Of a DNA stretch of 64,000 nucleotides, positions 39,899-57,945 are shown piece by piece. Both the position numbers and the translations under genes were made by a program. Origin of the DNA: Sanguibacter gelidistatuariae (lineage in GTDB: Bacteria > Actinomycetota > Actinomycetes > Actinomycetales > Cellulomonadaceae). The notes beneath the pieces are model-generated. The model had not been told where the DNA came from. It searched no databases and saw only the letters and a program-made list of their open reading frames with translations. Each line of letters opens with the position of its first letter. Position 1 is the first letter of the stretch. The stretch spans positions 455,997 to 519,996 of the forward strand of contig NZ_FMYH01000002.1 in NCBI RefSeq assembly GCF_900096585.1. The letters run 5' to 3'.

Positions 39899-39971
39899 CG
39901 GTCACCCACACGTGTGTGCGGTGCCCGGATGAGCACATCTGGGCATCTCACACAGTAGGTACGTCGACTGA

Positions 39972-40018: not shown

Positions 40019-41308
40019 ATGACCGCCCAGAACGAGATTGTTATGAACCAGGGCCTGGCCCAGGTCGACCCCGAGATCGCCGCCGTCCTCGACGGCGAGC
40101 TGGCCCGCCAGCGCGACACCCTGGAGATGATCGCGAGCGAGAACTTCGTCCCGCGTGCCGTCCTCGAGGCCCAGGGCTCGGTGCTGACGAACAAGTACGC
40201 CGAGGGGTACCCCGGACGCCGCTACTATGGCGGCTGCGAGCAGGTCGACATCGCCGAGAACCTCGCGATCGCCCGCGTCAAGGAGCTCTACGGGGCCGAG
40301 CACGCCAACGTCCAGCCGCACTCGGGTGCGACGGCCAACGCCGCGGTGCTGCACGCCCTCATCAACAAGGGTGACAAGATCCTCGGCCTCGAGCTGGCCC
40401 ACGGTGGTCACCTCACGCACGGCATGAAGATCAACTTCTCGGGCAAGCTCTACGAGGTCTCCGCCTACGGCGTCGACCCCGAGACGCACCTGGTCGACAT
40501 GGACAAGGTCCGCGAGACGGCCTTGGCCGAGCGTCCCGATGTCATCATCGGCGGCTGGTCCGCCTACCCTCGCCACCTCGACTTCGCGGCCTTCCGGGCG
40601 ATCGCGGACGAGGTCGGCGCGAAGCTCTGGGTCGACATGGCTCACTTCGCCGGGCTCGTCGCCGCCGACCTGCACCCGAACCCGGTGCCCTTCGCCGACG
40701 TCGTCTCCTCGACCGTGCACAAGACCCTCGGTGGCCCGCGGTCCGGCTTCATCCTGTCCAAGCAGGAATTCGCCAAGAAGATCGACTCGGCCGTCTTCCC
40801 CGGGCAGCAGGGTGGCCCGCTCATGCACGTCATCGCCGCGAAGGCCGTGGCCTTCAAGATCGCCGGCTCGGCCGAGTTCGCCGAGCGTCAGGAGCGCGTG
40901 CTGCGCGGGGCGAAGATCATCGCCGAGCGCCTCGTGGCCGACGACGTCACGAAGGCCGGCGTCTCGGTCCTGACCGGTGGCACCGACGTGCACCTCGTGC
41001 TCGTCGACCTGCGTCACTCCGAGCTCGACGGCCAGCAGGCCGAGGACCTCCTGCACGCCGTCGGCATCACGGTCAACCGCAACGCGGTGCCCTTCGACCC
41101 GCGCCCTCCGCGCGTGACCTCGGGCCTGCGCATCGGCACCCCGGCGCTCGCCACGCGCGGCTTCGGCGACAAGGAGTTCACCGAGGTGGCAGACATCATC
41201 GCGACCGCCCTGAAGAACGGCGCGGCGACCGACGTCGACTCCCTCAAGGCCCGCGTCGACAAGCTGGCAGCCGACTTCCCCCTCTACCCCGGCCTCCAGC
41301 AGTACTAA
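40019..41308 (+). CDS. glyA: Serine hydroxymethyltransferase
   Basis: A 429-residue PLP enzyme converting serine and THF to glycine and 5,10-methylene-THF, the main entry of one-carbon units. The PLP lysine is in [14 protein letters not shown] at about residue 235. [19 protein letters not shown] and [15 protein letters not shown] are the N-terminal signatures. [12 protein letters not shown] is the C-terminal one. AAGGAG lies 5 nt before the ATG. The 250-nt leader carries a ZTP riboswitch. folD follows after a terminator-like hairpin. Confidence 0.98.
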
Positions 41309-41408: not shown

Positions 41409-41514
41409 CCGCGGGTTTTGGCCGCAGTCGGCGGCCGGGTGGGCGCTCGGTAGACGTGCGCGGTGGTGCACGGTGGTGGGTGTGTCCGGTGGTTCGTGGA
41501 TAAAGGAGCGCAAC

Positions 41515-42417
41515 ATGACTGCACAGATTCTTGATGGCAAGGCTGCCGCGGCGCAGATCAAGGCCGAGCTGACCGCCCGCGTCTCGGCGCTGCGCGCGAG
41601 CGGCTCGACGCCGGGGCTCGGCACCCTGCTCGTGGGCGCGGACCCGGGATCCACCTGGTACGTCGCGGGCAAGCACCGCGACTGCGCAGAGGTGGGCATC
41701 GAGTCCATCCGCGAGGATCTGCCGGCCGAGGCGACCCAGGACGAGATCGAGGCGGCAGTGCGCCGCCTGAACGACGACCCCACCTGCACCGGGTACATCG
41801 TCCAGCTGCCGCTGCCGCGCGGCATCGACACGAACCGGGTGCTTGAGCTCATCGACCCCGACAAGGACGCCGACGGCCTGCACCCGATGAACCTCGGCCG
41901 CCTGGTGCTGCGCACCAACGAGCCGATCACCTCCTCGCTGCCGTGCACCCCGGCCGGGATCATCAACCTCATCGAGCGCAACGGGATCAGCCTCGCCGGC
42001 AAGCACGTCGTCGTCGTCGGGCGGGGGACCACGGTGGGTCGCTCGATCGGCCTGCTCCTTACCCGACGCGCCGTCAACGCCACGGTCACCCTGACCCATA
42101 CCGGGACCACGGACCTGCCGGCGCTGCTGCGCACGGCCGACGTGATCGTCGCGGCCGCGGGTGTGCCGGGCATCGTCCGCGCGCAAGACGTCAAGGCCGG
42201 AGCCGTGCTCATCGACGTCGGCGTCAGCCGTGCGACCGACCCCGAGACCGGCAAGTCCGTCGTCGTCGGTGACATCGACCCGGCCGCGGCCGAGGTGGCC
42301 GGCTGGATCTCGCCCAACCCGGGCGGCGTCGGCCCGATGACGCGGGCCATGCTGCTCGCGAACGTCGTCGACAGCGCCGAGCGGCGCCTGGCAGGACTGG
42401 CCGCGGCAGGAGCCTGA
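41515..42417 (+). CDS. folD: Bifunctional methylene-THF dehydrogenase/cyclohydrolase
   Basis: A 300-residue FolD, interconverting 5,10-methylene-THF and 10-formyl-THF with NADP. ATG 41515 follows AAAGGAG at 41502-41508. The catalytic Tyr and Lys are in [38 protein letters not shown] and [11 protein letters not shown] are invariant family segments, and [17 protein letters not shown] is the dinucleotide loop. It lies next to glyA, which makes its substrate. In many actinobacteria folD instead precedes DUF3017 and mdh, which are at the other end of this window. Confidence 0.97.
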
Positions 42418-44725: not shown

Positions 44726-45706
44726 TCAGGGGGGCGCCGTCTCCGGCAGTCGTGGGGTGTTCTCCCGGACGGTGAGGAGCAGCGCGTCGAGCTCCTTGCG
44801 GTTCTCCTCGAGGAACTCCTGCTCTCGGGCGATGCGGATCCCGTCTGTGATCGCGTCGTAGTCGAGGTCTGTGCGGCACGCGAGGTCGGCAGCAGCAGCC
44901 GCCACCTCGTCCGCTCGCTGGGCCTCGATCTCGTCGGGCGTCAGCTCGCCGTCGTTCGGGGGGAGCGCCTCCTCGAAGGTGGATGACGCGTTGCCGGGCG
45001 TGGTGTAGCCGAGGTACCCGGAGTCGGTCATGCACTGCGCCCACCGGGCGGCGATCTCGATCGTGCGCGGGTCGGTCCCGTCGGACGCGTACAGCTCGAA
45101 GATCTCCTCGTACAGGGCGAGGAGATCGGGGGTCGTCGCGAGGGCGCTCTCGATCGAGTATTCCGCCGTCGCCTGGTCGTTGCACCCGCCGACGTCCAAG
45201 AAGGCCGCGTAGTACGCCTCGCGCGCGGCCGGGGACAGGGCCAGGGCGATCTTGAGGTTGGGGTCGGGCTCGGACGCCGTCTGACCGGTTAGTGAGACGA
45301 GGGCGGCGGGGTTCTCCATCCCGACGCCCGTCTGCCCGGCCGTCACCCCCCACCCCTCGACAAGCTGGAATGCGGCCCAGTCGTCAGGCTCTGGCAGTGT
45401 GAACTCAAGCGGGCCGGCCAAGGACGGGATGTACTCGAAGCCCGCATCGCCCATGCATGTAGCAATGAAGTCTTGCTGCAAGCGGGCTTGTGCGACAAGG
45501 TCGACGCCGGCGTAGACCTCGGAGACGTACTCCTGGAGCAGGTAGGCGGACTCGGTGGGCGCCGTGGCCGGCTTGTCGTCGTCGGAGTCGCATCCGGCCA
45601 GCACCAGCGAGGAGCCCATCAGGGCCGCGCCGGTGGCGATCCCGAGGCGCCGCCGACGACCACTGCGCGGAGCGGGACGACCTCCGGTGCTCGCAGTGTT
45701 CGTCAT
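44726..45706 (-). CDS. Four-cysteine lipoprotein, subfamily A, copy 1 (unknown function)
   Basis: A 326-residue predicted lipoprotein: Arg-rich start, hydrophobic segment, lipobox LAGC at about residue 39. I do not recognise a named family. It shares with seven neighbours four cysteines after the lipobox: in CMGDAGFEYIP, VGGCNDQA, WAQCMTDSGYLGYTTP and AADLACRTDLDY. The last helix has EFLEENRKELDALL. The two CM..xG.xY..P motifs look like an internal duplication. Its ATG overlaps the stop of copy 2 by 4 nt (ATGA). It is the last gene of the operon that contains the MacAB-like transporter. It is probably attached to the outer face of the membrane, with two disulfides inferred. Confidence 0.8.
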   Translation of the reverse strand: MTNTASTGGRPAPRSGRRRRLGIATGAALMGSSLVLAGCDSDDDKPATAPTESAYLLQEYVSEVYAGVDLVAQARLQQDFIATCMGDAGFEYIPSLAGPLEFTLPEPDDWAAFQLVEGWGVTAGQTGVGMENPAALVSLTGQTASEPDPNLKIALALSPAAREAYYAAFLDVGGCNDQATAEYSIESALATTPDLLALYEEIFELYASDGTDPRTIEIAARWAQCMTDSGYLGYTTPGNASSTFEEALPPNDGELTPDEIEAQRADEVAAAAADLACRTDLDYDAITDGIRIAREQEFLEENRKELDALLLTVRENTPRLPETAPP

Positions 45707-46668
45707 GGAGTTTCCGTCTTCTCCGGCAGCCGTGGGGTGTTCTCTTGGGCGGCGATCACCATCGCGTCGAGGGCGTCCTGATTCTCGGTGACAAACTCGA
45801 TGTTGCGGGCGGAGCGGATGTCCAGGGTGACCTGGTCGTAGTCGAGCGCCTCGCGGCACTGCTCGTCCGTGACGGCGGTCGCGACCTCGAGGGCGCGCTG
45901 GGTCTCGAACTCGTCGGGAGTCAGCGGAGACAGGGGATTGGCGACGATCTCCTCGAAGCGGCTCGAGGCGTTGAATGGGGTGGTGTACCCGAGGTACCCG
46001 GCGTCCGTCATGCACTGCGCCCAGCGGGCGTCGAGGTCGAGTATGCGGGGGTCGGACCCGTAGTTGGAGCGCACCTCCCGCATCTCCTCATACACGGCGG
46101 CGAGGTCCGGGGTAGGCGCGAGGGCTCCCTCGATCGAGTACGTCTCGCGGGCCACCTGGGAGCAGCTGGTCGTCGACACAAGCTCACCGGTCGCGCGATC
46201 GATGCCGTAGAGCGCAAGGTCATAGGCGTCCTTGGTGGACGCGGACATCGCGTCGACGATCACTTCGTTGGGGTCCACGTCGACGACGGGAGTGAGCCGG
46301 GTGGACGACCCGGGGCCGGCCATGCCGGTCCCCGACTGCTCGGCAGTGACTCCCCACCCCTCGACGCGCCGGAACTCCGCATTCTCGGCTGGGTCGCCGA
46401 AGTCGAGGCTGATGGCGGCCGCGCGCGCGAACGTCGGGATGTACTCGAAGCCGAGGTCCCCCATGCAGGCAGCGATGGCGTCCTGCTCGAGGGACAGGCT
46501 CGCCGTGTAGTCGAAGCCGGCGAAGATCGCGTCCATGTAGGACTCGAACTCGTCCCCGGGGGAGACCGCCGTATCCGGGGTGCCGGGAGTCGAGCACCCG
46601 GCCAGCGCGGCGACGCACAGCCCCAGGGCGCTTCCCAGCACCAGAGAGCGTGCAACGCCGGCCGCCAC
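45703..46668 (-). CDS. Four-cysteine lipoprotein, subfamily A, copy 2 (unknown function)
   Basis: A 321-residue lipoprotein read from GTG 46668, 4 nt after the stop of the transporter permease gene. The lipobox is LAGC at about residue 25. The cysteine motifs are CMGDLGFEYIP, TTSCSQVA, WAQCMTDAGYLGYTTP and DEQCREALDY. It shares VEGWGVTA, a counterpart of the GYG motif in the other subfamilies, with copy 1, and both end in ENTPRLPE. The tight coupling to the permease gene suggests that it works with, or is handled by, the transporter. Confidence 0.8.
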   Translation of the reverse strand: MAAGVARSLVLGSALGLCVAALAGCSTPGTPDTAVSPGDEFESYMDAIFAGFDYTASLSLEQDAIAACMGDLGFEYIPTFARAAAISLDFGDPAENAEFRRVEGWGVTAEQSGTGMAGPGSSTRLTPVVDVDPNEVIVDAMSASTKDAYDLALYGIDRATGELVSTTSCSQVARETYSIEGALAPTPDLAAVYEEMREVRSNYGSDPRILDLDARWAQCMTDAGYLGYTTPFNASSRFEEIVANPLSPLTPDEFETQRALEVATAVTDEQCREALDYDQVTLDIRSARNIEFVTENQDALDAMVIAAQENTPRLPEKTETP

Positions 46669-46672
46669 GGCG

Positions 46673-48109
46673 CTAGATCCCCCCGCGCAGCGCGGTGATC
46701 GGTTCGATCGCCGCGGCTTTCATCGCCGGGTACAGGCCGGCGAGCAGGCCGATGACCCCGCCCATCGCGGCGGCGCCGAGCGCCATCTTGATGTCGAGGA
46801 TCGCCGTCCAGTCCTTCATGATCGACACACCCACCACGACGAACACCCCGATCGAGGCGCCGATCAGCCCGCCCAGCAGACCGATGACGACGGACTCCAC
46901 GACGAACTGCCACGCGATGTTGCGCCGGGTGGCCCCGAGCGCACGGCGCAGGCCGATCTCCCCGCGCCGTTCCATGACGGACAGCAGCGTGACGTTGGCG
47001 ATCCCGAGCCCGCCGACCAGCAGCGCGACGCCGCCCAGGGCGAGGAAGATCGCGTTGATGTCCGCCTGGACGTTCGCCCGCAGGTCCGATCCGGCCGGGG
47101 GAGCCTTGACCTTGAAGTTCTCCGGTCCGTTCGGGTCGAGCGCGATCGGTGCCTGTACCTTGACGAGCGGCCCGGCGCCGGTCGCGATCTGGATCTGCAG
47201 CTCGTCCGGGCGGGTGAGGCCGAAGTCCGCCTGCGCGGTGCCCATGGGGAGGATCACGGCGTCGAGCATGTCCGGGCGACGCTCCATCGCATTGACGATC
47301 CCGATGACCGTGTAGCTGTCGTCGCCGATGAAGATCGACGGCTGGCTCTCCAGCCGGCTGATCCCCAGCTTCTCCGCGGCCCGCTCGCCGAGCACGACGA
47401 CGCGGTCGGCGCGGGCGCTGTGCCCGTCGTCGAAGTAGCGTCCGGTGTTGACCTGGCCGCGGACGGCGTCGAGCAGCCCGCCGGAGGTCGCCAGGACCGC
47501 GGGGCCGATGCTCGCCGACGCGGAGGGGTCGTTGACCGGGACGGCCGTGACTTTGGCGCTGTTGGTGTTGACGATTGCGATGAGGCCCGCCTGCTCGACG
47601 CCGTTGAGCCGCATGACGCGTTCGGGGGCGTCCCACGGCAGCTTCGTCTTAGGCTGGGCGTTCCCGCTCCAAGAGTTGCCCGTCGTGTCCGGCTCGACGA
47701 CGACCTGCGTCGCGGCGACCGCGTCGAACTGCGCGCTGATCTGGCCGGCCGCGGTCTGGGCGAGGCCGACGGTCACCACGACGCTGCCGATGCCGAGCAC
47801 GGTGCCCAGGATGGTCAGCAGCAGCCGGCCGGGGCGGGCGCCGATGCCGTGGGCGGCTTCGGCGAACAGGTCACGGACCGAGAAGCGGTCCCGTCGGGCG
47901 CTGAGGTGGATCTGCGCCTTCGCGGTGCGCTCGCCGCGCCCGCGGCGCAGGAAGCCGGGCACCCGCAGGCGGCGACGGGCCTTGGGACGTTCCTGCCCGA
48001 CGTCGGGCAGGACGCCGGCGAGCAGGTCACCCTGCGGAGTGGTCGTCTCGGCGGTCGCCTCAGGGGTGGCCTCGGGCTGCGGGGCGCCCCGGGTCGAGAT
48101 GCGGTCCAT
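46673..48109 (-). CDS. MacB/FtsX-type ABC transporter permease
   Basis: A 478-residue permease of the MacB family. About 95 hydrophilic N-terminal residues (Arg/Lys-rich) precede the first helix (RLLLTILGTVLGIGSVVVTVGL). A large external domain (about 130-340) follows. Three C-terminal helices lie around ALGGVALLVGGLGIANVTLL, the FVVESVVIGLLGGLIGASIG region and AMGGVIGLLAGLYPAM. The motif MERRGEIGLRRALGATRRNI is the family's coupling segment. Its start overlaps the ATPase stop by one base. MacB-type systems do not move substrate through the membrane core; they transmit force to outer proteins or expel lipoproteins, peptides and toxins. Confidence 0.92.
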   Translation of the reverse strand: MDRISTRGAPQPEATPEATAETTTPQGDLLAGVLPDVGQERPKARRRLRVPGFLRRGRGERTAKAQIHLSARRDRFSVRDLFAEAAHGIGARPGRLLLTILGTVLGIGSVVVTVGLAQTAAGQISAQFDAVAATQVVVEPDTTGNSWSGNAQPKTKLPWDAPERVMRLNGVEQAGLIAIVNTNSAKVTAVPVNDPSASASIGPAVLATSGGLLDAVRGQVNTGRYFDDGHSARADRVVVLGERAAEKLGISRLESQPSIFIGDDSYTVIGIVNAMERRPDMLDAVILPMGTAQADFGLTRPDELQIQIATGAGPLVKVQAPIALDPNGPENFKVKAPPAGSDLRANVQADINAIFLALGGVALLVGGLGIANVTLLSVMERRGEIGLRRALGATRRNIAWQFVVESVVIGLLGGLIGASIGVFVVVGVSIMKDWTAILDIKMALGAAAMGGVIGLLAGLYPAMKAAAIEPITALRGGI

Positions 48110-48822
48110 CAGGCGACCTCCGTCAGTTCGCCGTCGGTGATCCGGACCCGGCGGCTGGCGCGGGAGGAGACGGCGAGGTCGTGGGTGATGACGATGAGGG
48201 TGAGGCCGTCACGGTGCAGCTCGTCGAAGAGGTCCATGATCCCGGCGGAATTTGTCGTGTCGAGGTTCCCGGTGGGCTCGTCGGCGAGAAGCAGCTTGGG
48301 GCTGGCGACGACGGCCCGGGCGATGGCCACGCGCTGGCGCTCGCCGCCGGAGAGGGTCGACGGGGTGAAGGTCATCCGGTGTCCCAGGCCCACTCGTTCG
48401 AGGGCGACCTTGGCCCGCTTCGTGCGCTCGCCCCGCGGGACGCCGGAGTACAGGGTGGCGAGGAGCACGTTGTCGAGCACGGTGCGGTTGGGCAGCAGGT
48501 GGAAGGACTGGAACACGAAACCGATCCGCCCGCCGCGCAACGCCGACCGGTCGGACTCGGAGGCCTTCCCGGTGGGCAGCCCGTCCAGCAGGTACTCCCC
48601 GCTCGTGGGGCGGTCGAGCAGCCCGAGGATGTGCAGCAGGGTCGACTTGCCCGAGCCGGATGGGCCGATGATCGACAGGTAGTCACCGGGGTTGACGACC
48701 AGGTTCGCCCCGGTGAGCGCGTGGACGTCGGGCGGACCCGGGAACGTCCGAGTCAGCCCGGCGAGCTCGACGACAGGGTGCGTGACCGGTCCCTGCAGGT
48801 GGATCTCTTCGGTGACCGTCAC
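48109..48822 (-). CDS. MacB/LolD-type ABC transporter ATPase
   Basis: A 237-residue ATPase with Walker A GPSGSGKST, Q-loop VFQSFHLLPNRTVLDNVLL, signature LSGGERQR, Walker B LLLADEPTGNLD and switch His in VITHD. These match the MacB/LolD/FtsE group. It overlaps the upstream adaptor gene by 4 nt and the downstream permease gene by one base. The three genes form a complete MacAB-like unit set between lipoprotein genes. Confidence 0.95.
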   Translation of the reverse strand: MTVTEEIHLQGPVTHPVVELAGLTRTFPGPPDVHALTGANLVVNPGDYLSIIGPSGSGKSTLLHILGLLDRPTSGEYLLDGLPTGKASESDRSALRGGRIGFVFQSFHLLPNRTVLDNVLLATLYSGVPRGERTKRAKVALERVGLGHRMTFTPSTLSGGERQRVAIARAVVASPKLLLADEPTGNLDTTNSAGIMDLFDELHRDGLTLIVITHDLAVSSRASRRVRITDGELTEVA

Positions 48823-50393
48823 TTGCCCACCACGACGAGGTCGCCGTCGGTGAGGTCGATCTCCGAGGAGACGATCTGGACGTACCCGCCCGCAGCCAGG
48901 CCGGTCTCTACCTTGATCAGCTCGGTCGTGTCACCGGTGACCTTGCGCTCGACCCGCGACTCCCCGCCCGGCCCGGCGGTCAGCGCGGCCGAGGGGACCG
49001 CGAGGACCTTGTCGCCGGTCGAGTTGACACCGATCGTGACCTTGATGTTGCTGCCCTGCAGGGTGGCGATCTGTTCCGGGGTCAGCGCGTCCGGGGTGAA
49101 GAGGACGGTGAAGCGGCCGGTGGTGGTCCCGGAGTCGCCGGTATCTCCCTCGTCGGTGCCGGTCTTCTCGGCGGCCTTGATCTCGGTGATCGTCGCGGTG
49201 GACGTGGTGCCGTCGGGGAGCGGGAAGGTCCCCGTCATGCCAGCCTCGAGCAGGTCGGCGTCCGAGCCCGCGACGGAGCCGGAGACGACGATGTTCGCTC
49301 CGGAGACGCTCATGACCGCCTTGGCGCTGGTGACGGTCTCGCCACGGGTCACAGTGACCTGGTCGACGCGTCGCGGGAGCGCGGCGAAGTACGTGATCTC
49401 GCTCGCGGGGAGGGAGGTCAATGTCGCCTCGAGCGCTAGGGCCAGCTCGGTCTCGGCGTCCTTGACGGCCTGGCTCGCGCTGTTGCGTGCGGTCTGCTGG
49501 GCGGCTGTGCCGGTCCCGGCGATCACGGCGTCGCGCTGGACGATCACGAGGTTGAGGCGATCCTGGGCGTCGGCGACGTCGTTCTCCTGCCCGCGGATGT
49601 CCTTGGGCAGGGCCACACCGTCGGCATCGACCTCGGCCGGGGCGTCACGCACGGCGATCGCCGTGTTGAGTGCGCGCTGGGCGCTGTTGACCTCGTTGTC
49701 GGCCGCGAGTCGCTCCGCCTTGGTCGGTCCGGACTTCGCGGTGGTGAGCTCGGCGTCGGCGGCGGTGAGCATGTCCTTGGCCGAGGCGAGCGAGGCGCGT
49801 GCCCCGGTCAGCGCGGCTGCGGCGTCCGCCGACGCGACGGGCGAGGGGTACCCGGCCATGACGTAGAGCTTGTCGACGGCGGCGGCAGTGCGGGCGTCGT
49901 AGAGGTCGGACTCGACGTTGCCCGGGTCGATCCCCAGGCTCGCGAGGGCCTGCTTGAGCTGGATGACGTCCGGGCCGGAGACTCCCACCCGCAGGCTGCG
50001 GAAGGCAGGCAGCTCGCCGGGCAGGGCGATGACCGGGCGCCCGGCGATCTCCAGCAGGATCGACGCCGCGGCGAGCTCGGTCCCGACCTCGGGGACCTTG
50101 CCCGTGACCACGGCGGCCCCGGAGATCTCGCCGGTCTCGATCTTCACCTCGACCGCCTCGTCGTAGAGGACGTCGGCGCGCATCGTCACGTCGTTGGCGA
50201 TGACCCGGTTCTCGACCGGGACGGTGATCAGACCGGCGGTCGGCGGCTGGGCCTTCGCGGCGGCGTCGCTCGGGGACTGGATGAAGCGGCTGAGCAGCAT
50301 GCCGGCAGCGAGCGAGAGGACGGCGACGATCGCGATCAGCCAGATGACTCGGTGACCGCGCAGCAGCGCGGTCCCGCGACCTGCGCCGCTCAC
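48819..50393 (-). CDS. Membrane-fusion/adaptor protein with peptidoglycan-binding domain
   Basis: A 524-residue single-pass adaptor of the MacA/HlyD type. GTG 50393 is chosen because it overlaps the stop of the upstream lipoprotein gene by 4 nt (GTGA). The membrane anchor is at about residues 12-30. A peptidoglycan-binding-1-like domain follows at about 130-185 (SLRVGVSGPDVIQLKQAL, AVDKLYVMAGY). Next comes an Ala/Glu/Asp-rich helical hairpin (about 195-345) and beta-rich lipoyl/barrel domains, with GLAAGGYVQIVSSEIDLTDG near the end. In a Gram-positive cell the wall-binding domain would tether the adaptor to peptidoglycan instead of an outer-membrane channel. Confidence 0.87.
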   Translation of the reverse strand: MSGAGRGTALLRGHRVIWLIAIVAVLSLAAGMLLSRFIQSPSDAAAKAQPPTAGLITVPVENRVIANDVTMRADVLYDEAVEVKIETGEISGAAVVTGKVPEVGTELAAASILLEIAGRPVIALPGELPAFRSLRVGVSGPDVIQLKQALASLGIDPGNVESDLYDARTAAAVDKLYVMAGYPSPVASADAAAALTGARASLASAKDMLTAADAELTTAKSGPTKAERLAADNEVNSAQRALNTAIAVRDAPAEVDADGVALPKDIRGQENDVADAQDRLNLVIVQRDAVIAGTGTAAQQTARNSASQAVKDAETELALALEATLTSLPASEITYFAALPRRVDQVTVTRGETVTSAKAVMSVSGANIVVSGSVAGSDADLLEAGMTGTFPLPDGTTSTATITEIKAAEKTGTDEGDTGDSGTTTGRFTVLFTPDALTPEQIATLQGSNIKVTIGVNSTGDKVLAVPSAALTAGPGGESRVERKVTGDTTELIKVETGLAAGGYVQIVSSEIDLTDGDLVVVGK

Positions 50394-51390
50394 TTCCGGG
50401 TGTCCTGGACGGCGGCGACGAACTCGTCGAGGGCGGCCTTGTTGTCCTTGACGAAGGCTTCCTCGAGCTCGAACTGAACCTTCTGCGAGATCTTGGCCAG
50501 GTCGACCGATTCCTTGCACTTGAAGTCGGCGAGCGCGGTCGAGAGCTCGATCTCACGGAAGGCCGCGATGGCCTCGCTCGAGGGGCCGGTGTAGTCCTCG
50601 GCCATCTCACCCTCGAAGCTGTAGAGCTCGTTCTGCGCTTCGCTCACGGAGGTCATGGCGTCGTCGGGGGTGGCGAACTCGGCGAAGCCGGCGTCAGCCA
50701 TGCAGTCGGCCCATTTGGCGGACAGCTCGACGACGCGGGGGTCCTTCTGCGCGGACGTGTAGAGCTCGTTCATGGAGTCCATGAGGTCTTCGAACCGAGG
50801 GTCGGAGTAGATGTCCTGCTCGTCGCCGCTGATCTCGTGCTGAGCGGAGCCCTGGCAGCCGCTGTCCTCCCAGTTGTACTCGTAGGTCTCCATCTCTTCT
50901 TCGGTCATCTCCGGCTGGACACCGTAGAGCACCTCGTAGAAGGCCGTCATCTCGGTCTCGGACAGGGTGGCGACGTAGTCCGCGTTCGGGTCGACCCACT
51001 CCTGCGTCGGCTCGCCATCGGTCGGCTCCTCGGTCGCCTCCATGCCCATCGACATGCCGTAGCCGTTCTTGGCCACCCACTCCTCGGTGTTCATGTCGGC
51101 GAAGTCGTCCTCGTTGAAGGACATCGACATGCTCGAGTAGTCCTGCGGGGTGTACTCGAAGCCCTCCGCGGCCATGCACTCGGCGACCAGGTTCTCTACC
51201 TCGGCCTGCTGACGGGTGCTCTCCTCCTGGTCATACTCGCCAAAGGCGGCGCTCATGATCTTGGACAGCGGACCTTCCTCAGGCTCGGCGCCGGTGGACC
51301 CGGGCTTCTCGTCGCCCGAGCACCCGGCCAGGGCAACAGGCCGACGAGTGCAACTGCTGAGGACAGGCGCAGGAGGGAAGGTCGGATCAT
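50390..51390 (-). pseudogene. Four-cysteine lipoprotein, subfamily B, frameshifted in the signal peptide
   Basis: The mature part (from about 51330 to 50390) is intact: lipobox VALAGC followed by SGDEKPGSTGAEPEE, then CMAAEGFEYTPQDYSS, WVAKNGYG, DSGCQGSAQHE, WADCMADAGFAEFATP, LADFKCKESVDL and EEAFVKDNKAALDEFV. The expected signal peptide starts at ATG 51390, behind AAAGGAG, and reads MIRPSLLRLSSAVALVGL, but in a different frame. One missing base near 51337 would join it to VALAGC. As written, the only in-frame ATG for the mature part is 51256, which removes the lipobox. This is either a real mutation or a sequencing error. It is the first gene of the transporter operon. Confidence 0.75.
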
Positions 51391-51463
51391 GGTCGGCAGG
51401 TCTCCTTTGACGAGGAATGCAATATGGTTGAAACCGGTACTAGACGGCATGCTGCTTGCCACA

Positions 51464-51507
51464 ACCCTAGACGCTGTGAGTCTCCTATGGGTCCACCCAT
51501 AGGTGGA
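51464..51507 (-). promoter_or_regulatory. Palindrome plus -10 box upstream of the lipoprotein/transporter operon
   Basis: TCCACCCATAGGTGGA (51492-51507) is an inverted repeat (TCCACC/GGTGGA around CATA). Reading on the reverse strand, TAGGGT follows after 22 bp (51469-51464). The palindrome starts 101 bp before the ATG at 51390. Three other lipoprotein units have related elements. Confidence 0.6.
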
Positions 51508-51535
51508 CATTCACTCACGTTCTCGCAGGTGGGGA

Positions 51536-52386
51536 TCATCCGATCGGCTGACGGGCCTCCGTGAGTGCGGCGACGTATTCATCGAGGAGGGCCTTGTTGT
51601 CTTTGATGAAGGTCTTCTCGAGCTCGAACCGGACTTGTTGCTCTGTCGTGTCCCAGTCCACCTTCTGCTTGCACCTGAAGTCAGCGAGCGCGGTCGAGAG
51701 CTCGAGCGCGCGAAACTCGGCCCTGGCATCACTTGAGGGGCCGCTGCCCGCCGGGGATCCCGCACTGAGGTCGCGGTCAGCTGAACGCATAGACGTCTCG
51801 TCGTCCTCGGGGGTGGCGAGGTCGGTGAAACCGGCGTCGGCCATGCAGTCCACCCAGTCGGCGGCGGCCTCGGCGACGCGAGGGTCGTCCAGCTCCGCGG
51901 AGAAGAGGACGGAGAGGGCCTCGGTGAAGGTCTCGTAGGTCACGCTCTGGTAGACGGCATCTTCTTTGGCGTTGATCTCGTGCTGAGCGGCGCCGTCACA
52001 GCCGCCGCGCTCTGGGCCGACTCCCGAACCGTGTCCATGGCGGTCGATATGCCGTAGCCGTTCGTGGCCACCCACGCCTCGGTGTTCTGGTCGGCCAGGT
52101 CCTCGTCGGTGGCCACGGTGACGGTTCCCGTGAGGTCCCGTGGAAGGTACTCAAAACCCTCCGCGGTCATGCACTCCGCGATCAGGTTCTCAGATCTGAC
52201 CCCGATCTTGTCGTAGTACTCCTGGTCACGGGCGCCCTCGGCGTCCCCGAGGAGCTGGGCCAAGGGGCCCTCCCTGTCCCCGGGGGCAGCAGTTGGCGCC
52301 GCCGTGCTGCCCGAGCACCCGGCAACGATGACCAGGCCGATCAGAGACGCCACTGACATCTCCCACGTGGGCATACGCCCGCTCAT
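51536..52386 (-). pseudogene. Four-cysteine lipoprotein, subfamily B, deleted and frameshifted copy
   Basis: The N-terminal half (from ATG 52386) has lipobox VAGC, CMTAEGFEYLPRD and WVATNGYGISTAMD. The C-terminal half, in another frame, has GGCDGAAQHEINAKED, WVDCMADAGFTDLATP, LADFRCKQKVDW and EKTFIKDNKALLDEYV. Compared with its neighbour at 50390, about 50 residues between GYG and the second cysteine (the DPN..Y..LS region) are missing and the frame changes at about 51990-52040. All four cysteine motifs survive at DNA level, so the decay is recent or the locus is recombining. It lies 5 nt after the upstream lipoprotein stop. Confidence 0.8.
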
Positions 52387-52391
52387 GCCGT

Positions 52392-53453
52392 TCACTCCCT
52401 GGCCTCGTGGTACGCCGCGACGAACTCGTCGATCTCGGCCTTGTGGTCGTCGACGAAGGTGGCCTCGAGCTCGAAGACGACCGTGTTCCACGTCGACTGC
52501 CAGCCGACCTGCTCCCGACAGGTGAAGTCCGCAAACGCGAGGGCGATCTCCTGCTCGCGGAACTCCGCGAGCTGCTCGCGGGTGGGACTGACGTAGTCGC
52601 CGGGAGTCCCGACGTCGCTGAAGAGTGCATTCGAGGCGCTGCTGAGGGAGTCCGCGGCCTCCGCCGGAGCGGGGAAGTCGGTGTACCCCTCGTCGGCCAT
52701 GCAGTCGGCCCATGCAGCATCGGCGGCCATCGTGCGGGGATCTTCCTTCACATCGGCGTAGATGTCGTTCATCGCCCGGAAGAGGACGGTGAACTCGGGG
52801 CCGTTGAAGAAGGCGGACTCGTTGCCGGAAACCTTCTCGTCGGCTATGCCGGAGCACCCGGCCGTCGACGGGTCATAGGAACTCTCGCCCGACTCCACCT
52901 CCTCCTCGGTCAGGCCCTTGGACTCGCCGTAGAGAGCCGCGCGGTACGCGGCCGACTCCGCTTTCGACAGGGACGCGGCATAGTCCGTGTTGGGGTCGGT
53001 ATGCAGGGGAACGGGCTCGCCGTCGGCCTGGGTGTTGACCAGCACGATGCCGTAGCCGTTCGTGGCGGCCCACTCGGCGGTGCCCTGCCCGACGAACCTC
53101 TCCTCATCGACGGCGTCGAACAACGACGAGTAGTCGACCGGGATGTAGTCGAAGCCCTGCTCGGTCATGCACGCCGCGATCTCGTTCTCAAGGGCGGCGC
53201 TCCTGGTACGCATCTCCTGAGGGTCCGGTCTGCCCAAGATCCCGCCCATAGCCTTCGAGAGCGGGCCGTCCTGCGGCCACGTGGCGGTGGCCTCGGGAGT
53301 TGGTGTCTGTGAGGCGCATCCGGTGAGGGCCATCGCCGCGACGAGGATCGTGACGCGCAGCGGTTGGTAGTTCACGGGGCGAGGCGCGCCACGCTCTCGC
53401 GAGCGTCGCGTGCTTGCTCGGGGGAGCAGGCCGTCGGCGGGGTGGTGTGACAT
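52392..53453 (-). CDS. Four-cysteine lipoprotein, subfamily B, intact copy (unknown function)
   Basis: A 353-residue lipoprotein. ATG 53453 has an AAGGA ribosome site; GTG 53375 (VNYQPLRVTILVAAMAL) gives a more normal signal peptide with lipobox LTGC and is a serious alternative. Motifs: CMTEQGFDYIPVDYSS, WAATNGYG, HTDPNTDYAASLSKAE, TAGCSGIADEKVSGNE, WADCMADEGYTDFPAP, FADFTCREQVGW and EATFVDDHKAEIDEFV. It heads a two-gene unit whose second gene is the degraded copy at 51536-52386, and it carries the shared palindrome about 98 bp upstream. Confidence 0.8.
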   Translation of the reverse strand: MSHHPADGLLPRASTRRSRERGAPRPVNYQPLRVTILVAAMALTGCASQTPTPEATATWPQDGPLSKAMGGILGRPDPQEMRTRSAALENEIAACMTEQGFDYIPVDYSSLFDAVDEERFVGQGTAEWAATNGYGIVLVNTQADGEPVPLHTDPNTDYAASLSKAESAAYRAALYGESKGLTEEEVESGESSYDPSTAGCSGIADEKVSGNESAFFNGPEFTVLFRAMNDIYADVKEDPRTMAADAAWADCMADEGYTDFPAPAEAADSLSSASNALFSDVGTPGDYVSPTREQLAEFREQEIALAFADFTCREQVGWQSTWNTVVFELEATFVDDHKAEIDEFVAAYHEARE

Positions 53454-53522
53454 GGGCGAGCATCCTTGCTCGAGACGCTTGCAACGGCCAGATCCGGCAC
53501 CGGGCGGCGTTTTGATACGCCC

Positions 53523-53567
53523 ACCCTAGGTGCCTGGATCGCCCGCGTCTATCCATCCCGGGACGGA
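53523..53567 (-). promoter_or_regulatory. Palindrome plus -10 box upstream of lipoprotein 52392-53453
   Basis: TCCATCCCGGGACGGA (53552-53567) is an inverted repeat with one mismatch in each arm pair; flanking TAT/ATA extends it. TAGGGT follows 23 bp downstream on the reverse strand (53528-53523), and TAGACG 17 bp before it is a fair -35. Confidence 0.55.
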
Positions 53568-53587
53568 TATCACCACCACACCGACCG

Positions 53588-54757
53588 TCAGACGACGCTG
53601 AGCCCCAGCCGGCGTCCGGCCAGCCCGCGGCCGCGCGCCGCGAGCGTGCGGGAGATCTCGATGAGGGCCAACGCGGCGGGGGAGGTGGGGTCGCTGAGCA
53701 CGACGGGGATTCCCTCGTCCCCGCCCTCGCGCAGCGTCACGTCGAGCGGGATGTGGCCGAGGAGCGGCACCTCGCCGCCGGTCAGCGACGTCAGGTTCGC
53801 GGCGACCCGCTCCCCGCCGCCCGTCCCGAACAGCGCGAGCCGGGAGCCGTCGGCCTGCTCGAACCAGGACATGTTCTCGATCACGCCGACAAGTCCCTGG
53901 TTGGTCTGCACGGCCACCGACCCGGCGCGCTCGGCGACCTCGGCCGCGGCCACCTGCGGGGTGGTCACCACGACGATCTCGCTGTTGGGGAGTAGCTGGG
54001 CGACGGAGATGGCGATGTCACCGGTGCCGGGGGGCAGGTCGAGCAGCAGCACGTCCAGGTCGCCCCAGAACACGTCCGCGAGGAACTGCTCGAGCGCGCG
54101 GTGCAGCATCGGACCGCGCCACACGACCGGCTGCCCGGCGGGCACGAACATGCCGATCGAGACGACCTTGACCTCGTGGGCGATCGGCGGCAGGAGCATG
54201 TTGTCGACCTTGGTCGGCTGGCCGGTCACTCCCAGCAGGCGGGGGATCGAGAAGCCGTAGATGTCGGCGTCGAGCACACCGACCTTGAGGCCGTCCGCGG
54301 CCATCGCGGCCGCGAGGTTCGCGGTCACGGTCGACTTACCGACCCCGCCCTTGCCCGAGGCGATCGCGTACACCTTGGTCAGGGAGCCAGGCTTGGAGAA
54401 GGGGATCTCGGGGGCGCCGGTGCCGCCGCGCAGCAGGGTGCGCAGGCCCAGGCGCTGCTCGGTGCTCATCACCCCGAGCTCGATGCGCACGTCTTCGATG
54501 CCCTCCACGGTGAGCGCCGCGGCGCTCGACTCGGAGGTCAGCGTGCTCTTCATCGGACACCCGGCCGTCGTGAGGTCGATCCCGACGACGGCGCGCGCCG
54601 CCCCCGGGCGCCCCGCGATCTCCTGCACGACGACGGAGCGCACCATCGACAGCTCGGTGATCGGTCGGCGGATCTCTGGGTCGATGACCGTGGTGAGCGC
54701 CTCGTGGACGGCGGTCTCGAGGGCGGTCAGGTCAGCCGGGAGCAAGGAGTCAGCCAT
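53588..54757 (-). CDS. mrp: Mrp/ApbC family iron-sulfur cluster carrier ATPase
   Basis: A 389-residue P-loop protein that carries or inserts Fe-S clusters. An N-terminal MIP18/DUF59 domain (about 1-105, with TAGCPMKSTL) is followed by the deviant Walker A SGKGGVGKST at about residues 133-142. LDADIYGFSIPRLLG and LLLDLPPGTGDIAI are further family motifs. The C-terminal CxxC of E. coli Mrp is absent: the equivalent MSWFEQADGSRLALFGTGGGE has none, as in other actinobacterial Mrps. It stands between two blocks of the lipoprotein array; DUF1003, MgtE and stress-protein genes usually lie close to it. Confidence 0.93.
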   Translation of the reverse strand: MADSLLPADLTALETAVHEALTTVIDPEIRRPITELSMVRSVVVQEIAGRPGAARAVVGIDLTTAGCPMKSTLTSESSAAALTVEGIEDVRIELGVMSTEQRLGLRTLLRGGTGAPEIPFSKPGSLTKVYAIASGKGGVGKSTVTANLAAAMAADGLKVGVLDADIYGFSIPRLLGVTGQPTKVDNMLLPPIAHEVKVVSIGMFVPAGQPVVWRGPMLHRALEQFLADVFWGDLDVLLLDLPPGTGDIAISVAQLLPNSEIVVVTTPQVAAAEVAERAGSVAVQTNQGLVGVIENMSWFEQADGSRLALFGTGGGERVAANLTSLTGGEVPLLGHIPLDVTLREGGDEGIPVVLSDPTSPAALALIEISRTLAARGRGLAGRRLGLSVV

Positions 54758-54821
54758 GGCGCCATCCTACGCAGCGTGGGGCCGTGGAAAGTGTGACCTT
54801 GGTCGATCGGAGGCTTGCGGA

Positions 54822-55820
54822 CTACTTCGCCTGGGAGGCCTGGACGACATAGTCGATGTACTCGTCGATCTCGGCCTTGTTGTCTGCGAGGAACTGGGCC
54901 TCGACCTCGTCGATGACGGAGTCCCGTACCGTCTCCCAGTCCACGGCTTCCTTGCAGTCGTAGTCGGCGAGGGCGACGGCGATCTCAAGGGCCTTGACCT
55001 CGTCGGAGGTGATGTAGGGGTCACCATCGGGACCGGGAGTGCCCTGGATCACGGCCGAGACGGACTCCCAGGCGTCGGTCGGAGAGGTGTAGACGTGCCC
55101 GGCGTCGGCCATGCAGTGCGCCCACTCGGTCGCCAGGTCCACCATCCTGGGGTGGGTGTCCAGGTCGCGCCAGGTAGTGGCGTACATGCGTTCCAGCAGG
55201 TCGGCATAGTCGGCGAAGAAGGCAGTGTCCCTGTCGGCATGCTGGACGAAGGCGGCCCAGGTGTAGCACCCGTCGGCCCGGGACCAGGGGGTGGACTCAT
55301 CCCTGTCGTTGGAGAGCGGGGGTCCGTTCAGCGCGAGATCGTAGGCGGCCTTGGTGCCCTCGGACAGCTGGGCGTAGATCGCGTCGTTCGGGTCGACTGA
55401 CGGGGGCCGCGCGGCGTTGGCGACACCGGAGGCGATCCAGGCGTCTCGTTCTGGACCTTCCAGCATTCCGCCGCTGAGGTCGTAGCCGACCCGGGCCACC
55501 CAGTCTCGGGTGCCCTTGTCGGAGACCTCGAGGTGGATCGTCTCGGGGGCGATGTAGGGGATGTAGTCGAACCCTGCCTCGGCCATGCAGGTGGCGATCC
55601 CCTCCTGGATCTCGATGTTGAGCGCAAGCTGTGCATCCTCGCCCGTCAAGGCTTCGGTGACCGGCGCCAGGTACTCCGTGAGCGGTCCCTCATAGCCCGT
55701 GCTGGGGCTGGCCGTGGCTTCGGGTGCGTCGCTCGCCGAGCAGCCTGACAGGACGAGGCTCAGTGCGGCGAGGAGCGCAGCAGTGCCTGCAGCGGTCCAG
55801 GGGTGAGCGGGTGCAGGCAA
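54822..55820 (-). CDS. Four-cysteine lipoprotein, subfamily C, copy 1 (unknown function)
   Basis: A 332-residue lipoprotein. TTG 55820 is chosen because GAGGAG lies 7 nt before it and it opens a clean signal peptide (PAPAHPWTAAGTAALLAALS) with lipobox LSGC; a GTG at 55847 is possible. Motifs: CMAEAGFDYIPYIAP, WVARVGYDLSGG, VDPNDAIYAQLSEGTKAAYDLAL, ADGCYTWAAF, WAHCMADAGHVYTSP, LADYDCKEAVDW and EAQFLADNKAEIDEYI (some quoted in part). It is the only gene of its unit, between mrp and the 55943-57945 pair, with its own palindrome upstream. Confidence 0.82.
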   Translation of the reverse strand: MPAPAHPWTAAGTAALLAALSLVLSGCSASDAPEATASPSTGYEGPLTEYLAPVTEALTGEDAQLALNIEIQEGIATCMAEAGFDYIPYIAPETIHLEVSDKGTRDWVARVGYDLSGGMLEGPERDAWIASGVANAARPPSVDPNDAIYAQLSEGTKAAYDLALNGPPLSNDRDESTPWSRADGCYTWAAFVQHADRDTAFFADYADLLERMYATTWRDLDTHPRMVDLATEWAHCMADAGHVYTSPTDAWESVSAVIQGTPGPDGDPYITSDEVKALEIAVALADYDCKEAVDWETVRDSVIDEVEAQFLADNKAEIDEYIDYVVQASQAK

Positions 55821-55880
55821 CTGACATCTCCTCAGGTGCGGCCGCACGACGTCGGACGGCGCGAGTAGCTGATGCTAGGC

Positions 55881-55924
55881 ATCCTAGGATCGGCGGTTCC
55901 CCGCGACATCCCCCCACAGGCGGA
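55881..55924 (-). promoter_or_regulatory. Palindrome plus -10 box upstream of lipoprotein 54822-55820
   Basis: TCCCCCCACAGGCGGA (55909-55924) matches the 58035 element at 15 of 16 positions. TAGGAT follows after 22 bp on the reverse strand (55886-55881). Confidence 0.6.
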
Positions 55925-55942
55925 TATGACGTACGGACTGCC

Positions 55943-56941
55943 CTATTCGAGCATGCTCTCCACGGCGGCGATGTACTCGTCGATCTCGGCCTTATTGTCG
56001 GCGAGGAACTGGGCCTCGACCTCGTCGCGGACCGTGTTCCTCATGGCATCCCAGTTCAAGGATGCCTGGCAGTCGTAGTCGGCCAGGGCAACGGTGATCT
56101 CAAAGGCCTTCAACTCCTCGGATGTGGCGTAGAGGTTGCCGCCCGCGCCGGGATCACCGTGGATCACGGCGTAGACGGAAGCCCATGCGTCCTCCGGCGA
56201 GGTGTAGGCGTGCCCGGCGTCGGCCATGCAGTGCGCCCACTCGGCCGTGAGGTCGATGATCTGGGGCTGAGAATCCAGGGTCTGCCATGCCGCATCCATG
56301 CGCTCGAGGAGATCGGTGAACTCGCTGAGGTCGTCCCGAGTCCGGCGGTCGGCCTGCTCGATCGCCCAGCTGGAGCATCCATCCTCCTTGGTCCACGTCG
56401 GGGAAGGGAGCGGCGAGCCGTTGACATCGATCGTGACCTGGTTGCGATTCTCCGGACCGTCGAGCGCGAGGTCGTAGGCGGCCCGGGTGCCCGGGGAGAG
56501 CTGCGCGTGCGGAGCGGCGTTCGGGTCGACGTAGTCGGGTATGTTCGCCTCCGCAGCCGCCCATGCCTGGGCCTCAGGCGTGCCCATGGCTCCGCCGCTC
56601 AGGCGGTATCCATGCCTGGCCACCCAGTCTAGGGTGCCCGCGTCCGAGACGGGTGCCACGACGAAGGGCGGCGCCACGAAGGGGATGTAGTCGAAGCCTG
56701 CCTCGGCCATGCAGCTGGCGACATCCTCCTGGTAGACGGCGTCGTCCGCCGCGGTCTGCTCGTCGCTCATGGTGGGGGCCAGGTATTCCAGGAGCGGCCC
56801 GCGGTGCTCGGTGGAGGTGGCAATGGCGGGGGTGCCCGGGGTGTCAGCTGATGAGCAGGCAGTCAGAACGAGCGCGACCGCGACGAGCGCCACAGCCGGC
56901 CCCCCGGTGGCCGCTGGTCGCGAGCGGGGAGACGCGCGCAT
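55943..56941 (-). CDS. Four-cysteine lipoprotein, subfamily C, copy 2 (unknown function)
   Basis: A 332-residue lipoprotein with signal peptide and lipobox LTAC near residue 29. Motifs: CMAEAGFDYIPFVAP, WVARHGYRLSGG, YVDPNAAPHAQLSPGTRAAY, EDGCSSWAIE, WAHCMADAGHAYTSPEDAW, LADYDCQASLNW and EAQFLADNKAEIDEYI (last one as in copies 1 and 3). Its ATG overlaps the stop of copy 3 by one base (TGATG), so the two are one transcript with coupled translation. Confidence 0.82.
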   Translation of the reverse strand: MRASPRSRPAATGGPAVALVAVALVLTACSSADTPGTPAIATSTEHRGPLLEYLAPTMSDEQTAADDAVYQEDVASCMAEAGFDYIPFVAPPFVVAPVSDAGTLDWVARHGYRLSGGAMGTPEAQAWAAAEANIPDYVDPNAAPHAQLSPGTRAAYDLALDGPENRNQVTIDVNGSPLPSPTWTKEDGCSSWAIEQADRRTRDDLSEFTDLLERMDAAWQTLDSQPQIIDLTAEWAHCMADAGHAYTSPEDAWASVYAVIHGDPGAGGNLYATSEELKAFEITVALADYDCQASLNWDAMRNTVRDEVEAQFLADNKAEIDEYIAAVESMLE

Positions 56942-57945
56942 CAGGGCTGTGGCCCTTGGAGCACGGCGGCGATGAACTCGTCGATCTCGGCCTTGTTATC
57001 GGCGAGGAACTGGGCCTCCACCTCGTCGACGACCGAGTTCCGCACCTCGTCCCACTTCAGGGTCTCCCTACAGTCGAAATCGGCCAGTGCGACTTCGATC
57101 TCGAGGGCCTTCGCCTCGTCAGAGGTGACATAGGGGTCGCCGTCAGGTCCGGGGTCGCCCTGGATCACGGCATAGACGGATTCCCACGCGTGTGTCGGGG
57201 AGGTGTAGACGTGCCCGGCGTCGGCCATGCAGTGTGCCCACTCGGTCGTCAGGTCCACCATCCGGGGTTGGCTGTCCACGGATATCCGGGAGACGATCAT
57301 GCGTTGTGCCAGGTCGTCGTAGTCGCTCAGGTGGGCTGAGCGCCGAGCGGTGACCTCGCCGGACGCCCAGAAACTGCACCCGTCGTCGCGGGTCCACTCG
57401 ACGCGCGTCCCAATCTCGTCGTCCGCTCCGTCGTCCTCGGTGAACCCAGGTCCGTATAGCGCGAGGTCGTAGGCGGCCTGGGTGCCCGGGGAGAGCTGGG
57501 CGTAGAGGGTCGTATTCGGGTTGACCCACTGGGGCAGCTCGGCGTTCGCGGCATCTTCGGCGAGCATGGCCTCGAGCTCCGGTCCCTCCACGACGCCACC
57601 GCTGAGACCGTAGCCGCGTCGAGCCACCCAGTCCCGCGTACCTGCGTCCGAGACCGGAACGCTGACACCGTTAGGGGTGGTGGCGTAGGGGATGTAGTCG
57701 AAGCCCGCGTCGGCCATGCAGCTGGCGATGGCCTCCTGGGTTTCGGTGTTGAGCGCGAGGTTTGCCTCTTCGCCCCCCACAACGTCGGCGATAGGGGCCA
57801 GGTACTCCGAGAGCGGCCCCCGGTGCGCCTCGGCGGTGGCCGCCGCAGCCTCGGGTCCCTCGCCCGCGGAGCAAGCCGTCAGGGTGAGGGCGAACGCCGC
57901 GGCCAGGGTGGCGGCGACCAGGGCGATCGGGCGGCGAGCGGTCAT
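56941..57945 (-). CDS. Four-cysteine lipoprotein, subfamily C, copy 3 (unknown function)
   Basis: A 334-residue lipoprotein. ATG 57945 follows AAGGAG and gives the signal peptide MTARRPIALVAATLAAAFAL with lipobox LTAC. Motifs: CMADAGFDYIPYATTP, WVARRGYGLSGG, WVNPNTTLYAQLSPGTQAAY, DDGCSFWASG, WAHCMADAGHVYTSPTHAW, LADFDCRETLKW and EAQFLADNKAEIDEFI. The paired CMADAG motifs in the two halves show best here how the protein may have arisen by internal duplication. It is the first gene of its unit. Confidence 0.83.
   Translation of the reverse strand: MTARRPIALVAATLAAAFALTLTACSAGEGPEAAAATAEAHRGPLSEYLAPIADVVGGEEANLALNTETQEAIASCMADAGFDYIPYATTPNGVSVPVSDAGTRDWVARRGYGLSGGVVEGPELEAMLAEDAANAELPQWVNPNTTLYAQLSPGTQAAYDLALYGPGFTEDDGADDEIGTRVEWTRDDGCSFWASGEVTARRSAHLSDYDDLAQRMIVSRISVDSQPRMVDLTTEWAHCMADAGHVYTSPTHAWESVYAVIQGDPGPDGDPYVTSDEAKALEIEVALADFDCRETLKWDEVRNSVVDEVEAQFLADNKAEIDEFIAAVLQGPQP

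What the first reader, a model, noticed from the sequence alone, without database searches (positions are those of the whole stretch)
44726..57945. Eight-copy family of four-cysteine lipoproteins built around a MacAB-like transporter
Seen: eight reverse-strand lipoprotein genes or remnants share, after the lipobox Cys, four cysteines in fixed motifs (CM.xxGF.Y.P, a GC followed by a short polar stretch, W..CM.D.G, and AD..C), plus a W...GYG-like motif and a C-terminal F...N...lDe helix. They fall into three subfamilies by sequence and position: A 44726-46668, B 50390-53453, C 54822-57945. A complete permease-ATPase-adaptor set lies inside the array and overlaps lipoprotein genes at both ends (50390/50393; 4-nt gap at 46668/46673). 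Known: MacB-type systems work mechanically on periplasmic or lipoprotein partners. Inference: the lipoproteins are partners, sensors or cargo of the transporter, and copy number has grown by tandem duplication under diversifying selection. I recognise no named family.
Basis: partly seen in the sequence, partly recalled or inferred. Interest (0 to 1): 0.87.

Follow-up and report, generated by a model that had tools for sequence, protein, structure and literature searches.

The report
Fast-evolving lipoproteins around a MacAB-like transporter
An actinobacterium carries eight related but diverging lipoprotein genes around one MacAB-like transporter; the family has no name, usually accompanies this transporter type in close relatives or a small secreted protein in distant ones, and may be a capture system for harmful molecules outside the cell.

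Summary
Eight paralogous four-cysteine lipoprotein genes (one a remnant, one with its signal peptide in another frame) surround an adaptor-ATPase-permease operon. Pfam, NCBIfam, PHROGs and PDB sequence searches gave no family; a confident all-helical model (pLDDT 88) finds no convincing fold match. In the window's own taxonomic family, 89 of 94 adaptor places have the lipoprotein immediately upstream; three more have one within about 1.3 kb and two lie at contig ends. Class-wide, 33 of 35 close adaptors, but 2 of 63 more distant ones, have it nearby. One 'core' copy abuts the adaptor; accessory copies arose in the locus and mostly diverge faster (12 of 16 loci). Identity falls from ATPase and permease to adaptor to lipoprotein. 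In the wider family only 37 of 123 genes lie near such an adaptor; others often sit beside a small secreted-looking I36 protein (31 of 77 places in 39 genomes), and two loci hold all three. Best reading: a surface capture subunit that hands harmful extracellular peptides or proteins to a MacAB-like pump, the array being a repertoire. The partnership is well supported; the capture function is inferred. Diversifying selection is not shown (gene-wide dN/dS below 1).

The parts
56941..57945 (-). C1: accessory four-Cys lipoprotein
   Evidence: ORF, lipobox LTAC by eye, family alignment
55943..56941 (-). C2: accessory four-Cys lipoprotein; start shares one base with C1 stop
54822..55847 (-). C3: accessory four-Cys lipoprotein
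52392..53453 (-). B1: accessory four-Cys lipoprotein, fast evolving (terminal branch 0.97)
51536..52386 (-). B2: broken remnant; N-terminal and C-terminal pieces in different frames
   Evidence: pieces matched separately
50390..51390 (-). B3: core copy; mature domain open 50390-51256, signal peptide from 51390 in another frame; stop overlaps adaptor start
48819..50393 (-). Adaptor with PG_binding_1-like segment
   Evidence: PG_binding_1 at E<=0.1 in 11 of 12 members, in the window protein just under the cut-off; 1 of 12 matches RND_mfp; NCBI names two plasmid homologues peptidoglycan-binding protein
48109..48822 (-). ABC ATPase, LolD/FtsE/MacB-like
46673..48109 (-). MacB-type permease (MacB_PCD + FtsX)
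   Evidence: best PDB match 5xu1_M E 5.9e-24
45703..46668 (-). A1: accessory four-Cys lipoprotein, 4 nt after permease stop
44726..45706 (-). A2: accessory four-Cys lipoprotein

Best explanation
The locus encodes a MacAB-like extracytoplasmic transporter of an actinobacterium with a dedicated lipoprotein subunit. Shown by sequence and comparison: one core lipoprotein gene overlaps the adaptor gene and is conserved with it; accessory copies arise beside it and mostly diverge faster. Inferred: the lipid-anchored, disulfide-stabilised helical domain sits outside the membrane, binds harmful peptides or small proteins and passes them to the adaptor, so that the MacB-type permease, driven by the cytoplasmic ATPase, expels them from the space under the cell wall. 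The accessory copies would be a changing set of capture variants sharing one pump. This works like LanI plus LanFEG or YknXYZ, without being shown to be a member of either.
For: In 221 family genomes, 88 have the adaptor (E<=1e-30) and 87 of these a strong lipoprotein match. 89 of 94 adaptor places have it immediately upstream; three others have one within about 1.3 kb and two start at contig ends. Class-wide 33 of 35 close adaptors against 2 of 63 distant ones (Fisher p 2.5e-21, genomes not independent). Overlapping stop and start codons. Window against its nearest relative: ATPase 92%, permease 91%, adaptor 82%, core lipoprotein 69% identical, no accessory copy above 45%; dN/dS 0.10, 0.16, 0.22, 0.45 at dS 0.37-0.53. 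The core has the shorter terminal branch in 12 of 16 loci (Wilcoxon p 0.0013). Core distances track adaptor distances after allowing for ATPase and permease (37 loci, partial r 0.54, p 0.001). Copies without a transporter beside secreted-looking I36 proteins (31 of 77 places; two plasmids) point to a secreted ligand. Regulators beside relatives: two-component systems, SigE-family sigma factors, PadR. The MacB review reports AMP protection for Gram-positive MacAB-like pumps (PMC5985334, passages seen).
Against: No ligand is known and no binding was tested. Five family genomes have a strong lipoprotein without such an adaptor (G030, G128, G129, G147, G157; three are under 85% complete), and 31 of the 150 listed lipoprotein places are not within 15 kb of one on the same contig. 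The own genome has no I36 gene. Accessory copies also track the adaptor (partial r 0.36, 16 loci) and in a 27-locus subset the lipoprotein also tracks the permease (r 0.25, p 0.008), so the distance test does not single out a core-adaptor contact. In 4 of 16 loci the core is not the slower copy. No gene-wide dN/dS above 1. The core copy itself has its signal peptide out of frame in this assembly.
Confidence: 0.5

Rival explanations
1. Structural or regulatory subunit: the lipoprotein binds the adaptor and fixes its assembly, conformation or wall position, much as YknW may act on YknX, and does not itself bind substrate.
For: Tight pairing of the core copy with one adaptor subfamily, overlapping genes, distance correlation with the adaptor.
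Against: Does not explain several divergent copies per single transporter, nor the 86 of 123 class-level genes with no close adaptor within 5 kb.
Confidence: 0.25
2. Immunity or receptor proteins of a secreted-protein antagonism system: I36-type secreted proteins are the toxins or ligands, the lipoproteins their cognate immunity or docking proteins, and the transporter one way of using them. The window array would be an orphan immunity set.
For: 31 of 77 lipoprotein places in 39 genomes have a PF03995 match within 2 kb, 30 of the 31 on the same strand; about 0.14 is expected from gene density (my arithmetic), in eight families by the tool's labels. Two loci hold I36, lipoprotein and transporter together (L132, L154). 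Two Streptomyces plasmids show the pair.
Against: I36 members are named as protease inhibitors, and no call shows killing; the own genome has none; 46 of 77 places lack a PF03995 neighbour.
Confidence: 0.2
3. Cargo: the transporter extracts the lipoproteins from the membrane, as LolCDE does, and moves them to the wall or outside.
For: The ATPase's best NCBIfam match is LolD (220.6 bits); MacB-type permease.
Against: The LolD score is below its cut-off of 307.75; one permease plus an adaptor; relatives are encoded without the transporter nearby.
Confidence: 0.12
4. Chance neighbourhood: unrelated lipoproteins that happen to sit in a conserved Mrp-to-ExoIII region.
For: Mrp, DUF1003, MgtE and ExoIII genes flank many of the loci.
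Against: The pairing also holds where those flanks were not found, for example in Leucobacter, Leifsonia and Kribbella (L051, L052, L057), in L125-L127, L132, L138 and L162 (flanks not sought there), and on plasmids.
Confidence: 0.02

Closest known systems
Gram-positive MacAB-like pumps (YknWXYZ, AS-48FGH, SpMacAB)
   Same: ATPase and MacB-type permease with an adaptor in an operon, no outer membrane; YknX binds peptidoglycan (PMC5985334, passages seen). The permease's best solved relative is 5xu1 (that it is the pneumococcal MacB is recalled)
   Different: A four-Cys lipoprotein in multiple copies, where those systems have YknW or AS-48E; adaptor with a PG_binding_1-like segment and no Pfam HlyD match
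LanI/LanFEG lantibiotic immunity (NisI/NisFEG)
   Same: A LanI protein and the LanFEG transporter both protect the producer (start of the abstract of PMC4828448 seen in a search listing; that NisI is a lipoprotein is recalled)
   Different: MacB-type permease with adaptor; no sequence relation of the lipoprotein found; lanthipeptide genes were not searched for and none was noticed among the neighbouring ORFs
LolCDE lipoprotein release
   Same: LolD-like ATPase and a permease distantly like LolC/LolE
   Different: Single permease, an adaptor, scores far below LolD/LolC/LolE cut-offs
Peptidase inhibitor family I36 (PF03995)
   Same: Frequent neighbour of the same lipoprotein family in other Actinomycetes
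   Different: A separate protein, absent from the own genome

Membership tests
MacB-type ABC transporter | Permease with MacB_PCD and FtsX domains | tested here: met
   MacB_PCD 70.6 bits (cut-off 27) and FtsX 65.2 bits (cut-off 25.5); PDB 5xu1_M E 5.9e-24 over residues 88-475
MacB-type ABC transporter | ABC ATPase partner | tested here: met
   ABC_tran 113.8 bits (cut-off 25)
MacAB-TolC tripartite pump | MacA/RND-type periplasmic adaptor | tested here: inconclusive
   1 of 12 members matches TIGR01730 RND_mfp, E 2.1e-6; no Pfam HlyD match, PG_binding_1 in 11 of 12 at E<=0.1; structure not obtained
MacAB-TolC tripartite pump | ATPase and permease fused in one MacB chain | tested here: not met
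   Separate genes 48109-48822 and 46673-48109
MacAB-TolC tripartite pump | TolC exit duct | not tested
   No search for TolC was run
YknWXYZ | YknW-like membrane protein in the operon | tested here: not met
   The genes between 44726 and 58035 are lipoproteins, Mrp, adaptor, ATPase and permease; the rest of the genome was not searched for YknW
LolCDE | ATPase and permease above LolD/LolC/LolE cut-offs | tested here: not met
   LolD 220.6 of 307.75 bits; LolC 27.9 of 473; LolE 26.5 of 439
LanI/LanFEG | Known LanI-type lipoprotein | tested here: inconclusive
   No Pfam or NCBIfam match of the lipoproteins, but it was not checked whether these libraries hold a LanI model
Any named lipoprotein family | Match to a curated family | tested here: not met
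   No match near a cut-off in Pfam or NCBIfam; weak sub-threshold hits only, also in PHROGs; none in PADLOC or PDB sequences
Any known fold | Similarity of the model to a solved structure | tested here: inconclusive
I36-linked lipoprotein pair | I36 gene next to the lipoprotein | tested here: not met
   0 PF03995 matches at E<=0.01 in the own genome

The most novel reading that the evidence does not exclude
A so far undescribed actinobacterial surface system: a four-cysteine helical lipoprotein family recognises secreted beta-gamma-crystallin-like (I36) proteins used between cells, serving alone as immunity or docking protein, or feeding a MacAB-like pump; arrays such as this one are polyspecific immunity repertoires against neighbours.
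Probability: 0.2. Interest if true: 0.85.

Novelty: new variant of a known kind. Interest (0 to 1): 0.62.

Why it matters
The adaptors of Gram-positive MacAB-like pumps have no outer membrane to bridge, and their role is an open question (PMC5985334, passages). A dedicated lipoprotein, tied to one adaptor subfamily and multiplied in diverging copies, would be a testable specificity element. The link to I36 proteins offers a concrete candidate ligand class and a possible competition system in Actinomycetes. The family is common (117 of 221 genomes of its taxonomic family; 70 of 296 drawn from its class), yet its four relatives found on named plasmids are called hypothetical protein.
Full report
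What is there. The window holds eight reverse-strand copies of one lipoprotein family at the stated places. B2 is a remnant in two frames. B3 has its mature domain open but its signal peptide lies in another frame, while the nearest relative (L067) has an intact copy. Between B3 and A1 lie an adaptor (48819-50393), an ABC ATPase (48109-48822) and a MacB-type permease (46673-48109). B3 and the adaptor, and the adaptor and ATPase, share GTGA at stop and start; ATPase and permease share one base; A1 starts 4 nt after the permease stop. An Mrp-type gene separates the B and C copies. In the own genome no other place matches the family profile better than E 0.2; a single-protein search gave one further short stretch at E 9.6e-4, not confirmed by the profile.

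Association with the transporter. In 221 genomes of the window's taxonomic family, 117 have the lipoprotein at E<=0.001 and 88 the adaptor at E<=1e-30. Of the 88, 87 have a strong lipoprotein match (E<1e-40); the 88th (G088) has a weak one, and its adaptor lies at a contig end. Five genomes have a strong lipoprotein without such an adaptor: G030, G129 and G147 (67-84% complete), G128 and G157. Of 94 adaptor places, 89 have a lipoprotein immediately upstream on the same strand. Of the other five, two start within 330 bases of a contig end, and the three others, fetched as L180-L182, have a lipoprotein 0.3, 0.6 and 1.2 kb away, the last on the other strand. Of the 150 lipoprotein places that one search listed, 119 lie within 15 kb of an adaptor on the same contig and 31 do not. 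Of 12 named loci, 11 have the adaptor next to the lipoprotein (Leucobacter, Leifsonia, Oerskovia, Cellulomonas, Kribbella, Actinotalea and one MAG); the twelfth, L062, is a 5.4-kb contig. In 296 genomes drawn from the class, 33 of 35 adaptor genes with E<1e-24 have a lipoprotein within 2.5 kb, against 2 of 63 weaker ones (Fisher p 2.5e-21; genomes are not independent). Of four Streptomyces plasmids with a match, two carry the four-gene operon, named hypothetical protein, peptidoglycan-binding protein, ABC ATP-binding protein and ABC permease.

The other context. Class-wide only 37 of 123 lipoprotein genes lie within 5 kb of a close adaptor. I fetched 40 loci from the hits: 9 have the adaptor beside the lipoprotein. 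Of the other 31, 22 have a hit to profiles of small secreted-looking proteins; those profiles were built from proteins of 18 of these same loci. Of six such proteins scanned, five match PF03995, peptidase inhibitor family I36, above its cut-off and one has no match. An independent count with the Pfam model: in 39 genomes chosen for having a lipoprotein hit, 31 of 77 lipoprotein places have a PF03995 match (E<=0.01, a few below the cut-off) within 2 kb, 30 of the 31 on the same strand; 36 of 103 I36 places are so placed; by my arithmetic about 0.14 would be expected. The 31 come from eight families by the tool's labels. The other two Streptomyces plasmids show annotated I36 genes beside the lipoprotein. 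Two loci, L132 and L154, hold I36, lipoprotein and transporter genes together. The own genome has no I36 match. A quick tree of 67 rows has two sides: one with 38 rows, 33 labelled transporter (the window's eight by hand, as C lies over 3 kb away) and 5 with neither neighbour; the other with 29 rows, 18 I36-linked, 4 transporter, 2 both, 5 neither.

Evolution. A tree of 82 copies shows the A pair and the C trio as window-only clades on long stems and B3 beside the core copy of the nearest relative. Where a locus has several copies, the core has the shorter end branch in 12 of 16 loci (Wilcoxon p 0.0013), not in the other 4. Against the nearest relative, identity falls from ATPase 92% and permease 91% to adaptor 82% and core lipoprotein 69%; no accessory copy exceeds 45%. 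dN/dS is 0.10, 0.16, 0.22 and 0.45 in that order (flanking Mrp 0.15, MgtE 0.06); between paralogues it is 0.39-0.81. This fits exposure to changing ligands or relaxed constraint; positive selection is not shown. Distances of the core lipoprotein follow those of the adaptor after allowing for ATPase and permease (37 loci, partial r 0.54; by ranks 0.32; both p 0.001), with little left for permease or ATPase. But in a 27-locus subset the permease also shows 0.25 (p 0.008), and accessory copies show 0.36 with the adaptor in 16 loci. This supports coupling, not a specific contact.

Mechanism. Shown: a family with lipobox and four conserved cysteines, co-encoded and overlapping with one adaptor subfamily, with one conserved and several diverging copies. 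From the literature: Gram-positive MacAB-like pumps protect from extracellular peptides such as SDP, probably acting from outside the membrane, and YknX binds peptidoglycan (PMC5985334, passages seen); nisin producers are protected by NisI and NisFEG (PMC4828448, start of abstract in a listing). Inferred: the lipoprotein captures a harmful peptide or small protein and hands it to the adaptor and permease, and the array widens the range of ligands. Members that lack the transporter but sit beside a secreted-looking protein suggest that binding something secreted is the basic property and that the pump is one way of using it. Regulators beside relatives (two-component systems; SigE-family sigma factors; PadR) fit an envelope response. 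I rate the partnership with the transporter about 0.9 likely and the capture role about 0.5.

Standing. The transporter belongs to the MacB-type group by domain and solved-relative tests. It is not a classical MacAB-TolC pump (separate chains), not YknWXYZ (no YknW in the array) and not LolCDE (scores under cut-offs). The adaptor's MacA kinship is only weakly supported. Searches of open-access papers aimed at the family or the I36 link found nothing on them; subscription journals are not covered. Hence: a new variant of a known kind, with a less likely but more novel reading as an immunity repertoire tied to I36-type secreted proteins.

Noticed in passing
window 39770-39903 (+): ZTP riboswitch upstream of genes that look like glyA (40019-41308) and folD (41473-42417) (gene names from reading the translations), an ordinary arrangement.
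   Followed up: partly
L056 6805-9856; also seen in L053, L069, L164-L168, L170-L172, L175-L178, L183: A second MacAB-like set sits upstream of the lipoproteins in many loci of the family (in L056 an HlyD-type adaptor, ATPase and MacB permease; elsewhere a second ATPase and/or weaker permease hit). It was not seen upstream of the array in the window.
   Followed up: partly
L154 9722-10995: Three tandem small secreted-looking genes (the one scanned matches I36) upstream of a four-Cys lipoprotein, with the adaptor operon divergent.
   Followed up: partly
L138 and plasmid locus L186: Same order in both: two-component system, DUF3152 gene, lipoprotein, peptidoglycan-binding adaptor, ATPase, permease.
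   Followed up: no
G162:C9:296930-317633: Lipoprotein and adaptor genes appear as a mirrored pair on one contig, either a large inverted duplication or an assembly artefact.
   Followed up: no
G157 (L183): Lipoprotein and the second transporter lie between Mrp and ExoIII, but no match to the main adaptor: an apparent loss.
   Followed up: no
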